Below the pieces are notes generated by a model. It saw only the letters and a program-made list of their open reading frames with translations. It searched no databases and had not been told where the DNA came from. A program made the translations under genes and the position numbers. From assembly GCA_041530395.1 (NCBI GenBank), contig CP136945.1, positions 124,001 to 188,000 on the forward strand: a stretch of DNA of 64,000 nucleotides, read 5' to 3'. This DNA is from Thermosynechococcaceae cyanobacterium Okahandja (GTDB lineage Bacteria; Cyanobacteriota; Cyanobacteriia; Thermosynechococcales; Thermosynechococcaceae). Positions within the stretch are counted from its first letter, which is position 1, and each line of letters begins with the position of its first letter. Below are positions 56,416 to 59,771 of the stretch, piece by piece.

Positions 56416-57191
56416 GGTGGTCCTAAAAATGTAAGGATGAAAGGGATAACAGCAGAAAACCGATGTCTAATTGCCAACCCACCTGCCCTGATTGCCTGTC
56501 AAGTCATGTCGTCAAAAACGGCAAAATCCATAACGGTAAACAGAACTTTAAATGCCGTGAGTGTGGCAGACAATTTGTGCAAGACCCTCAGAATAATATC
56601 CTTGACCCAGCAACCAAAACCTTGATTGATAAATTGCTGCTGAAGAAGATTCCCCTAGCCGGAACTGCCAGAGGGGCAGACGTTTCAGAACCTTGGCTTC
56701 AGAGCTATGTCAACCAGAAATATCAGGACGTGCCGCGTCAAGTGCAGGTGTGGGTCCCAAAAAAGGGCGTTTAACCATTCCGTGTGACGAGATGTGGTCG
56801 TTTGTAGGCAACAAAGGCAACAAGCAGTGGATTTGGCTCGCTCTCGATGTGGAAACACGAGAAATGGTCGGAGTGTATGTTGGCAACCGGAGTTGTAAGG
56901 GGGCACAGGGGTTATGGGATGCGTTGCCAGCCGTGTATCGGCAGTGCGCGGTTGCTTACACCGATTTTGGGTCTGCTTATGATGAGATTTTTCCAAGTAA
57001 GGGACATCAAAGCGTGGGAAAAGACAGTGGTAAAACCAGCCACATTGAGCGCTTTAACTGCACGTTGCGCCAACGGGTATCGCGGTTAGTCAGGAAAACA
57101 TTATCGTTTTCCAAGAAGTTGGAGAACCATATCGGGGCAATTTGGTATTTCGTTCACCACTCCAATGCATCCTTACCTGTTTAGCACTACC
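56416..57191 (+). mobile_element. IS1-family insertion sequence, 776 bp
   Basis: Inverted terminal repeats of 24 bases at 56416-56439 and 57168-57191 agree at most positions (GGTGGTCCTAAAAATGTAAG against the complement GGTAGTGCTAAACAGGTAAG). The element encloses two overlapping reading frames with InsA and InsB character. Size is typical of IS1. It is inserted in the grpB gene; the flanking bases AATAATTT and TGATGTGT do not form a target-site duplication, so a neighbouring deletion or rearrangement after insertion is possible. Confidence 0.9.
56463..57184 (+). CDS. IS1-family transposase InsA-InsB, joined by a programmed -1 frameshift
   Basis: InsA (56463-56774) begins with zinc-finger-like CPDCLSSHVVKNGKIHNGKQNFKCRECGRQF and a helix-turn-helix region. 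InsB (read from 56693) contains the DDE-type core DEMWSFVGNKGNKQWIWLALD and YTDFGSAYDEIF, with the Glu in SHIERFNCTLRQR. InsA's frame ends GVPKKGV-stop, while the -1 frame continues PKKGRLTIPCDE. The junction is A AAA AAG at 56759-56765, a canonical slippery heptamer, as in other IS1 elements. The product is expected to be about 240 residues. Activity is plausible as both halves look intact. Confidence 0.88.
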
Positions 57192-57552
57192 TGATGTGTT
57201 CTAATGCCTTCTTGGTTATCCTTACGGAAGTATCTACGACCAGAGATTCCAAACTCACCCATTGCTTTGCAATCTAATAACTCCATTAACCTATTCTGCT
57301 CATCAACTTTAGCAATGTCTTTGACCTCAACTAACAGATCAATAATTGGCTTGGCGTATATGTGGTGAATGGCTGTACACCACATTGGTAGTACAGCAAC
57401 AGCATTTTTGTCTAGGGCAGTCATGACCTGATTAGACACATTGGTAGTACAGCAACAGCATTTTTGTCTAGGGCAGTCATGACCTGATTAGACTCAACTT
57501 TGAACATTTCTTGCCACTTCGGATCATGCGGCACAACCATTACTTTTTTCAT
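57191..57552 (-). pseudogene. GrpB-family (UPF0157) gene, disrupted by a tandem duplication and by IS1
   Basis: The minus-strand gene starts at 57552 with MKKVMVVPHDPKWQEMFKVE (GrpB/UPF0157, nucleotidyltransferase-like fold). At residue about 30 a 56-bp tandem duplication (57381-57493) shifts the frame, after which the second copy resumes SNQVMTALDKNAVAV and reads YAKPIIDLLVEVKDI and GISGRRYFRKDNQ. The 3' part ends where IS1 is inserted at 57191 (GIRTHQ then VVLNR from the IS). The C-terminal domain is lost. Two independent lesions make it nonfunctional. It is the innermost gene of the cassette array. Confidence 0.8.
57381..57493. repeat. 56-bp tandem duplication in grpB
   Basis: The same 56 bases occur twice in succession (57382-57437 and 57438-57493), with no mismatches. 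As 56 is not divisible by three, the grpB frame is shifted. Confidence 0.95.
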
Positions 57553-57617
57553 GGTTTGACATCCTAATAATATCCTAGATTTACAGACTGCTACCCTACG
57601 GTAACTAACCTCAAGCC

Positions 57618-57682
57618 AGCTAACGACCAAGGTCACCGGGCGAGCGCAGGTGACCCTCTATTTCAAAACCGGCTGGTTCGTC
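57618..57682 (-). other. attC-like site of the VOC cassette
   Basis: Read on the minus strand: R''-like GACGAAC at one end, GTTAGCT (R') at the other, and a central inverted pair GGTCACC/GGTGACC in a short stem. The outer boxes are imperfect matches to RYYYAAC and GTTRRRY, so this is the weaker of the three hairpins. It lies between the VOC stop and the grpB start, as an integron recombination site should. Confidence 0.6.
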
Positions 57683-57701
57683 CGCATTTCTGCGTAAGAG
57701 T

Positions 57702-58082
57702 TCACGTGACCTTGGTAGCGATCCACCACGTTGTCCCGCCACTATCCTTTACTCCACCGCGTTTGTCATCGTTTTTCTTCTTGACAGGTTCTTGAACGGA
57801 GGAAGCTCCCGCCGTCAATGCACGCTGATAAGTGTCGTCGACGTCGGGCACGTAAACATGGACATAGGATGGCATTGGTGACCATTCGTCAGTGCAATCT
57901 GCAATCATGACAACAGTATCCCCAAGTCGTACCTCGGAATGCATCAGGCGACCATTCTCATCGGGAAACCTACGGATTTCCTTTGCATCGAACACTGCTG
58001 CCAAGAAACGAATAGTCGCATCAGCATCGGTGACAATGAGATACGGAGATGCCGTATTGTAACCATCGGGCTTGTAAGTCAT
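57702..58082 (-). CDS. VOC (glyoxalase/PhnB-like) superfamily protein in an integron cassette
   Basis: A 126-residue vicinal-oxygen-chelate protein. Paired beta-alpha-beta-beta-beta units are visible: SPYLIVTDADATIRFLAAVFDA and, in the second half, VHVYVPDVDDTYQRALTAGASSVQEPVKKKNDDKRGGVKD, ending with GGTTWWIATKVT. It resembles PhnB-like glyoxalases, whose substrates vary; the metal-site residues can only partly be assigned. It is flanked on both sides by attC-like hairpins and is more GC-rich than neighbouring AT-rich sequence, consistent with a transferred cassette. Confidence 0.8.
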   Translation of the reverse strand: MTYKPDGYNTASPYLIVTDADATIRFLAAVFDAKEIRRFPDENGRLMHSEVRLGDTVVMIADCTDEWSPMPSYVHVYVPDVDDTYQRALTAGASSVQEPVKKKNDDKRGGVKDSGGTTWWIATKVT

Positions 58083-58131
58083 TGATGTGTATTCCCTGTC
58101 GTGTGATGCTTCAAGGGTATTGCGGACGAAC

Positions 58132-58193
58132 GTTTAACATGAGCGGCATGACCCGGCAAGCCGGGTCATGCCCGCTCGATCGAATAGTTGGGC
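58132..58193 (-). other. attC recombination site of the RidA cassette
   Basis: Read on the minus strand: R'' is GCCCAAC (RYYYAAC), R' is GTTAAAC (GTTRRRY), and between them is a 17-bp stem GAGC-G-GGCATGACCCGGC with GCCGGGTCATGCC-GCTC that leaves one extrahelical G. These are the defining features of integron attC sites. It starts 2 bases after the RidA stop codon. Confidence 0.85.
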
Positions 58194-58194
58194 G

Positions 58195-58581
58195 TCACCG
58201 CGCGCTCTTCATAGCAGTGACCTCGATCTCAATTCGCATTCTCGGATCAGCCAACCCAGCAGAGATCATCATGGCCGCCGGGCGAATTTCACCAAAGTAC
58301 TTTCGTAGGACCGGCCAGCACTCTGGAAACTCGGCGCCATTGGGAAGCACGTAGGTCACGCGAACAACGTCCTGCAGGCTTGACCCGGCCTGCTCAAGCG
58401 CTGCGGCGATGTTTTTTAAGCACTGCTCCGTCTGCTCTAGCAGACCGCCGGCGATGGTCATGGTTGAGTAGTCGAAGCCAGTGGTTCCGGAAACAAAGAC
58501 CCACTCGCCAGCGACCACGGCTCGCGAGTAGCCGATCTCATGCTCGAAAGTAGAACCAGAGCTGATCAGCTTCCTAGTCAT
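58195..58581 (-). CDS. RidA (YjgF/YER057c/UK114) family protein in an integron cassette
   Basis: A 128-residue RidA-fold protein: SRAVVAGEWVFVSGTTGFDYSTMTIAGGLLEQTEQCLKNIAAALEQAG, then RVTYVLP and RPAAMMISAGLADPRMRIEIEVTA with the conserved Arg-containing end. RidA proteins hydrolyse reactive enamine/imine intermediates, but many members of this broad family have other roles. The cassette also has about 220 bases of non-coding leader (58582-58800) without a clear feature. Flanked by attC sites at 58132 and 58801. Confidence 0.82.
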   Translation of the reverse strand: MTRKLISSGSTFEHEIGYSRAVVAGEWVFVSGTTGFDYSTMTIAGGLLEQTEQCLKNIAAALEQAGSSLQDVVRVTYVLPNGAEFPECWPVLRKYFGEIRPAAMMISAGLADPRMRIEIEVTAMKSAR

Positions 58582-58800
58582 TGGTACCTCGGACGAACTC
58601 GTGCAGGCTTACCCAGTGATGTCCCACGATTGAACTCACCCGCTGTCATTGACTTGGGATTCTAGAGGCAGTTTAGCATATGGTCGGGTGCAGTGATTTG
58701 TTATGTTGTGTAAACTTTCCCACCGATCGCCTACCAATCTCCACAGTTCCCAGCGCCCCTTCACCAACAACCTTGCCCACTCACGACTCTGGCGCTGGCA

Positions 58801-58897
58801 ACATAACGACCCAGCTCAGTAGCGGCGGGGGCCGAGTGAGCTGTGAACTCCAGAAAGCCTAGCCGCCCCCGCCGTCTGCTGCAGCGCCTGGTTCGGC
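58801..58897 (-). other. attC-like site of the first cassette
   Basis: Read on the minus strand: GCCGAAC at the beginning and GTTATGT at the end, with a long imperfect stem in which GGCGGGGGC pairs with GCCCCCGCC and CCAG-type outer arms pair. R' departs from GTTRRRY at one position. It starts 6 bases after the stop of the following hypothetical gene, as expected for its cassette's own attC. Confidence 0.7.
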
Positions 58898-58903
58898 GTG
58901 CCT

Positions 58904-59224
58904 TTACTCGCCGCGCAGAACCTCACGGTCGGCTGGCTCGCCCTCGGGGACGAAGCACCGGAACTGCCCGTCGCGGCCGTCGATGTACAGCCGGCCGCAC
59001 GCTCGGCACTGCCACATGAGCCGGGCCGAGCGGCTGATGATCTGCCGGGCGTGGTGGTACGCCGCCTCCTTGCCCAACCGCCCGTCGGCCACCGGGTCGA
59101 TCACCTCGTTGTCGATGGCGTCGCAGGTGGCGAACCACGCCTGGTCGGGGATCAGGTGCCCCTTGTACGGCAGGTCGTCGGTCTGGTCGATGATCGACGA
59201 CCCGCAGTGGCAACCAATCTTCAC
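58904..59224 (-). CDS. Small zinc-binding hypothetical protein in an integron cassette
   Basis: A 106-residue protein, KIGCHCGSSIIDQTDDLPYK, then GHLIPDQAWFATCDAIDNEV, then LMWQCRACGRLYIDGRDGQFRCFVPEG. Two CxC/CxxC pairs suggest a zinc site. I recall very similar proteins as common integron-cassette passengers, but no function is known to me. Its border boxes (GCCTAAC at 59272 and attC at 58801-58897) delimit a cassette of about 480 bp. It is GC-rich, unlike the AT-rich DNA immediately to the right. Confidence 0.75.
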   Translation of the reverse strand: MKIGCHCGSSIIDQTDDLPYKGHLIPDQAWFATCDAIDNEVIDPVADGRLGKEAAYHHARQIISRSARLMWQCRACGRLYIDGRDGQFRCFVPEGEPADREVLRGE

Positions 59225-59271
59225 GCCGCAAGCCCTCCGCCGCCGAACTAGTAATTAGGTCGCGATTGGCA

Positions 59272-59278
59272 GCCTAAC
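59272..59278 (-). other. Outer border of the cassette array (GTTAGGC box)
   Basis: On the minus strand GTTAGGC matches GTTRRRY and begins the first cassette. Unlike the attC sites it has no partner hairpin to its right, so it could be an attI-type site or the remnant of a lost cassette's attC. Confidence 0.5.
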
Positions 59279-59549
59279 TCTTGGATGCTTGACAAAAAAC
59301 TAAAGCCTTACCATAAATAATTGGTTGCAGTATACGACGATAACCCTCAAGGTGTCAAACACTGCTCATCGCTGGATATACAAATGTTTACGACGGCAGT
59401 ATAAACCTTACTGGATAAGACTTGTGACTTCTAGAGAAAAAGATACTAGAAGGAATCTAGCGGATATGCATTCTCCCTTAAAAAGGCCAAGAGTCAGTCA
59501 CAGAAAAGCTTTGAGTGCTAAATTTAACAGGGTGTTATACGGTCATGAC
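59279..59549. other. AT-rich intergenic stretch right of the cassettes
   Basis: Expected position of an integrase gene (divergent, plus strand) if the array were complete. No tyrosine-recombinase motifs are present in any frame. A plus-strand frame beginning at 59325 runs through it without family features. It looks non-coding. Confidence 0.5.
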
Positions 59550-59771
59550 ATGAAACCGTCGCCTCCCCCCCGAAACGCAAGCTCCTCGACCCAGTGCCAG
59601 ATGCAGTTAACGCTGTCGCAAATGAAGGCGACAGGTTATGCCTACGTGGTGATTGGTTGGGTCTGCTCAGGCGCGTTTTATGCTGAGGCGGTGGAGGTCG
59701 CCAATAGGTTATCTGCGGGGATCAAAAGTGCCCTGCGGCGGCTCATTTTAGGATATACAGGAATTAGCTAG
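59550..59771 (+). CDS. Possible small protein, unrecognised
   Basis: A 73-codon frame from ATG 59550 whose second half, MKATGYAYVVIGWVCSGAFY then AEAVEVANRLSAGIKSALRRL, reads like a structured protein with a possible short hydrophobic helix. The first half is low-complexity. I do not recognise a family. Its end overlaps the convergent M23 gene by 8 bases. It may be the surviving C-terminus of an older gene. Confidence 0.3.
   Translation: MKPSPPPRNASSSTQCQMQLTLSQMKATGYAYVVIGWVCSGAFYAEAVEVANRLSAGIKSALRRLILGYTGIS

What the first reader, a model, noticed from the sequence alone, without database searches (positions are those of the whole stretch)
57191..59278. Integron-type gene cassette array without an integrase in a cyanobacterium
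Four minus-strand genes are separated by attC-like hairpins. The best (58132-58193) has exact R'' (GCCCAAC) and R' (GTTAAAC) boxes and a stem with an extrahelical base, 2 bases after the RidA stop. Others are at 57618 and 58801, with a border GTTAGGC at 59272. Passengers (RidA, VOC, a small CxC protein) are typical of integron cassettes. No integron integrase motifs occur to the right. Integron cassettes are usually described in Proteobacteria, so this cluster (CALIN type) would be a striking acquisition.
Basis: partly seen in the sequence, partly recalled or inferred. Interest (0 to 1): 0.78.

Follow-up and report, generated by a model that had tools for sequence, protein, structure and literature searches.

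The report
Relic integron array in a cyanobacterium
A cyanobacterium (probably Thermosynechococcus) carries a frozen remnant of an integron, the natural gene-capturing device of bacteria, whose own integrase gene is gone; one captured gene is shared with Planctomycetota bacteria, but the device is native to cyanobacteria and of a known kind.

Summary
The array is real. A covariance model built from other genomes' attC sites finds two of four sites clearly (34.8 and 24.1 bits), one weakly (13.6), one not (6.2). Independent support: each cassette's first bases complement its own R'' box (15 of 16 variable positions; 16 of 52 for mismatched pairs), and likeness between leader copies stops at the crossover point.

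The leader recurs at two other places in the genome, beside a broken integron integrase gene at one and a fragment at the other. The pseudogene groups with intact integrases of its own cyanobacterial family (98% bootstrap). The window keeps a scrap of the acetyltransferase gene that follows intI elsewhere, so it looks like a platform copy that lost intI. Cassette 1 matches a Planctomycetota MAG over its whole length.

So it is a CALIN from a native cyanobacterial integron, not an import from Proteobacteria. Cyanobacterial integrons are already in print. Ordinary in kind, well supported, moderately interesting.

The parts
59249..59614 (-). Integron leader with attI-like site; crossover between 59248 and 59247
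   Evidence: 80% identical over 384 columns to L035 beside the intI pseudogene, 82% over 230 to L036; likeness stops at the G|TT
59329..59358 (-). Candidate cassette promoter Pc, TTGACA-18-TATACT (inferred)
   Evidence: 11 of 12 consensus matches, but the region holds no more promoter-like sites than shuffles, 2 against 2.4; similar motif in the two other leaders, with CATACT or a 19-base spacer
59602..59703 (+). Remnant of the acetyltransferase (GNAT) gene that follows intI at L035
   Evidence: 85% identical over 105 columns to L035:10195-10299; that gene is GNAT by Pfam
58807..59247 (-). Cassette 1: CxC protein (CDS 58904-59224), attC 58801-58897
   Evidence: R1 24.1 bits; closure 4 of 4; match to Planctomycetota L138 over the whole cassette
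58627..58806 (-). Cassette 2, ORF-less, attC 58621-58706 with degenerate R' GTGGGAC
   Evidence: R1 34.8 bits; closure 4 of 4; no sense ORF of 50 aa or more, one antisense 60-aa ORF overlaps; copies in L036, L037, L038
58131..58626 (-). Cassette 3: RidA (CDS 58195-58581), attC 58125-58193
   Evidence: R1 13.6 bits, filters off; closure 3 of 4; hairpin z -4.59; Pfam
57624..58130 (-). Cassette 4: VOC protein (CDS 57702-58082), attC 57618-57682, degenerate
   Evidence: R1 only 6.2 bits; closure 4 of 4; its R' end shares 26 bases, 96% identical, with a site of L036; Pfam
57192..57623 (-). Cassette 5, truncated: GrpB gene with a 56-bp tandem duplication
   Evidence: PF04229; duplication; no attC seen before the IS
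56416..57191 (+). IS1-family insertion sequence that cuts the array
   Evidence: PF03400; inverted end repeats and no visible target duplication

Best explanation
This is a decayed chromosomal integron without its integrase (a CALIN). A native cyanobacterial platform (intI, attI leader, downstream acetyltransferase gene) came to stand at more than one place in this chromosome. IntI captured circular cassettes by joining a folded single-stranded attC to the G|TT of attI. At this locus a deletion then removed intI and most of the acetyltransferase gene, and an IS1-family element with a rearrangement cut the far end. The remaining intI copies are broken too, so the cassettes are now fixed genes, perhaps still transcribed from the leader. 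Shown: cassette boundaries, two attC sites, a leader shared by three loci, a broken intI beside one of them, no intact intI found in the genome, and a whole-cassette match to Planctomycetota. Inferred: past integrase action, the deletion route, IS-linked truncation, transcription.
For: attC model hits; closure 11 of 12 against 16 of 52, plus 4 of 4 at the leader junction; leader shared with L035 and L036 and ending at the crossover; intI pseudogene head-to-head with the leader at L035 and a fragment at L036; acetyltransferase remnant behind the window leader; pseudogene clusters with its family's IntIs; whole-cassette homology.
Against: Two of four sites fail the default model search, and 57618 fails with filters off too. 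The 58621 hit is helped by two training rows of the same cassette type from a sister genome. Three of four sites fold little or no better than shuffles. The likeness of cassette 1 to L138 overruns the crossover by about 17 poorly matched bases. The control array L117 does not pass the closure test, 9 of 16 against 43 of 84. No empty or intact version of this locus was found.
Confidence: 0.88

Rival explanations
1. No platform ever stood here: an integrase acting from elsewhere inserted the cassettes at a secondary site.
For: Single attC hits lie far from the arrays elsewhere in the genome, so off-target insertion is conceivable.
Against: A full leader and an acetyltransferase remnant precede cassette 1 here.
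Confidence: 0.07
2. A ready-made array, leader included, was moved here as one block from L035, L036 or another strain by IS or homologous recombination, so the deletion of intI happened elsewhere.
For: IS1-family element at one end; accC and M23 are not neighbours in relatives.
Against: The leaders differ by about 20%, so any move is old or from another lineage. Not excluded; it differs from the main reading only in the order of events.
Confidence: 0.25
3. The hairpins are chance or terminators between unrelated genes.
For: 57618 scores 6.2 bits; three of four sites fold little or no better than shuffles.
Against: Closure, leader junction and whole-cassette homology agree on the boundaries; no terminator-like site was found.
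Confidence: 0.02

Closest known systems
CALIN (cluster of attC sites lacking an integron integrase)
   Same: Consecutive attC-bounded cassettes with no intI beside them
   Different: Keeps its attI leader and a remnant of the gene that follows intI, so its origin can be traced
Cyanobacterial chromosomal integrons (such as L120, with intact IntI and 15 attC sites)
   Same: attC consensus, array divergent from intI, related integrase
   Different: Here intI is deleted at the locus and broken elsewhere in the genome
Gene-less promoter cassettes of Vibrio (PMC11014356, abstract)
   Same: A short cassette without a gene, repeated in arrays
   Different: Promoter activity untested here; a consensus scan found none in it; sequences were not compared

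Membership tests
CALIN | At least two attC sites less than 4 kb apart (definition as in a passage of PMC9668308) | tested here: met
   58621-58706 and 58801-58897 at E 1.5e-6 and 0.0011, with our own model, not IntegronFinder's
CALIN | No integron integrase beside the cluster | tested here: met
   No TIGR02249 or PF00589 hit in the window
Integron | attI site beside the first cassette | tested here: inconclusive
   Shared leader ends exactly at G|TT; recombination not tested
Integron | Cassette circle closure: start complements own R'' | tested here: met
   15 of 16 positions
Complete integron | Functional intI | tested here: not met
   Deleted here; L035 copy has frameshifts, a stop and a missing stretch, L036 only a fragment
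Integron | Pc promoter | tested here: inconclusive
   Consensus match only, no excess over shuffles
Integron | IntI-mediated excision or capture | not testable with these tools
   Needs an assay

The most novel reading that the evidence does not exclude
One integron platform was copied to at least three sites of one chromosome, giving several attI landing pads served in trans by a single integrase, with one recurrent ORF-less cassette used as a portable regulatory unit across the arrays; the death of the integrase then froze all of them.
Probability: 0.25. Interest if true: 0.5.

Novelty: new member of a known kind. Interest (0 to 1): 0.36.

Why it matters
It traces, in one genome, how a CALIN can arise from a complete platform (leader and neighbour-gene remnant kept, intI gone), and gives a whole-cassette match between Cyanobacteria and Planctomycetota. 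It does not change what an integron is.

Tried and rejected
Rfam scan of the window: no family reached its gathering score. The R''/R' consensus pattern alone is useless in this genome: 54 forward matches, 90 for the reversed control. A first scan by duplex energy gave mostly noise. A stricter home-made scanner, at its threshold, found none of the four window sites and gave 2 other hits against 4 decoys in the window; over 365,606 bases of other loci it gave 23 candidates against 3 decoys. Of these 23, 21 went into the model; L089 and a near-duplicate of L120 were dropped.

Proteobacterial origin through RidA: the best plasmid homologue (Variovorax, 82.5% of residues) is alike only within the gene and has no R1 attC hit. 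Cassette 1 has no plasmid match at 1e-5. Empty site: accC and M23 lie far apart in 7 of 7 single-contig relatives and on different contigs in 3 drafts, so no clean empty site exists; a try at L037 and L143 stayed unclear. In one search two of eleven L036 sites were left out as a separate cluster.

Literature searches. One search (Thermosynechococcus and integron) listed 9 papers; their titles and the abstract starts shown report no such array; they were not read. Only passages were seen of PMC8618304, PMC9668308, PMC3108266, PMC2426708 and PMC8352920; abstract and outline of PMC11014356; the rest as listings. Box names, extrahelical base and Pc are recalled.

Full report
What is there. The window is bases 124001-188000 of a single 2.82 Mb contig, 100% complete by the table. 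The name Thermosynechococcus is an inference from genome size and gene content; no tool named it. On the minus strand an M23 peptidase gene is followed by a leader, four cassettes, a broken fifth cassette, an IS1-family element and then a biotin carboxylase gene, here called accC.

attC sites. Sites from other genomes' arrays were collected, 21 were aligned and made into covariance model R1, with none from this genome. In a search of 108 kb, R1 finds 58621-58706 (34.8 bits, E 1.5e-6) and 58801-58897 (24.1 bits, E 0.0011) in the window. The first is helped by two training rows of the same cassette type from sister genome G019; the second has no such row. With filters off over 2.6 kb, 58125-58193 scores 13.6 bits (E 0.016) and 57618-57682 only 6.2 (E 1.6). 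The whole genome has 18 hits at E 0.1, two of them in the window; of 11 same-genus genomes 6 have hits and 5 none. Folding alone separates only the RidA site from shuffles clearly.

Closure test. A cassette is a circle before insertion, so its first bases should complement the R'' box of its own attC. For consecutive window sites the four variable positions agree 11 of 12 times, against 16 of 52 for non-consecutive pairs. Cassette 1, whose start is fixed by the leader junction, adds 4 of 4. Control arrays give 52/56 (L120), 29/32 (L036) and 23/24 (L038), against 492/844, 149/292 and 96/172; L117 gives only 9/16 against 43/84, perhaps because sites between its distant hits were missed. The test and the model both put the R' box of the RidA site at GTTCGTC.

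Leader and integrase. About 370 bp before cassette 1 match L035 (80% over 384 columns), and 230 bp match L036 (82%); the likeness stops at G|TT. At L035 the leader stands head-to-head with an integron integrase gene (TIGR02249, 236.6 and 88.9 bits, below the 265 cut-off) broken by a frameshift, a stop, a missing stretch and another frameshift. At L036 a fragment remains. Behind intI at L035 lies a GNAT acetyltransferase gene that four of four relatives examined keep beside the same thioredoxin-like gene. The window holds about 100 bp of that gene behind its leader. The simplest reading is a second copy of the platform that lost intI and most of the acetyltransferase gene.

Native, not imported. 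Over-cut-off IntI occurs in 6 of 29 family genomes and 15 of 292 phylum genomes; none of 14 control genomes reaches the cut-off. In a tree of 25 IntIs (LG+G4, ultrafast bootstrap) the pseudogene groups with three IntIs of its own family at 98%; deep nodes are weak, and one Acinetobacter IntI falls beside a cyanobacterial one at 60%. L120 is an intact example: 15 attC hits, all on the strand opposite intI.

Where the cassettes come from. Cassette 1 aligns with a Planctomycetota groundwater MAG (L138) at 86% over 464 columns, ending at the R' box; at the other end the alignment overruns the crossover by about 17 poorly matched bases. A second Planctomycetota MAG (L139) has 84% of the residues. 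R1 finds an attC behind the gene in both (20.0 and 17.3 bits). Neither genome has an over-cut-off IntI. The direction of transfer is unknown. The best plasmid relatives are 82.5% (RidA) and 51% (VOC) at the protein level. The core of cassette 2 was found in 4 of 292 phylum genomes: three reported copies here, and one or two in each of three other genera. By analogy with Vibrio (PMC11014356, abstract) it may carry a promoter; a consensus scan found none in it.

State today. No intact IntI was found in the genome, so the cassettes are probably not shuffled from within. The IS1-family element shows no target duplication, and accC and M23 are far apart in 7 single-contig relatives and on separate contigs in 3 drafts, so the far end was probably lost in an IS-linked rearrangement. 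The leader holds TTGACA-18-TATACT, with similar motifs in the other two leaders, though the region has no more promoter-like sites than shuffles.

Judgement. A well supported CALIN from a native cyanobacterial integron: a new member of a known kind.

Noticed in passing
L036:6431-14181 (G000:C1, about 1734430-1742180): A longer sister array behind the same leader, with three copies of the ORF-less cassette and genes for a DNA methylase, a PIN protein and a Fic protein.
   Followed up: partly
L035:6125-8629: First cassette behind the third leader encodes an 834-aa fused BsuBI/PstI-type restriction enzyme and methylase.
   Followed up: partly
L143:6358-7422: A lone 79-bit attC follows a two-gene pair that looks like a toxin-antitoxin pair by eye; Pfam gave no support.
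   Followed up: partly
L162:8980-9942 (Kovacikia minuta plasmid pB): An annotated integron integrase on a cyanobacterial plasmid, 69.6% identical to that of L120.
   Followed up: no
window 57381-57493: Perfect 56-bp tandem duplication inside the GrpB gene, which shifts its frame.
   Followed up: yes
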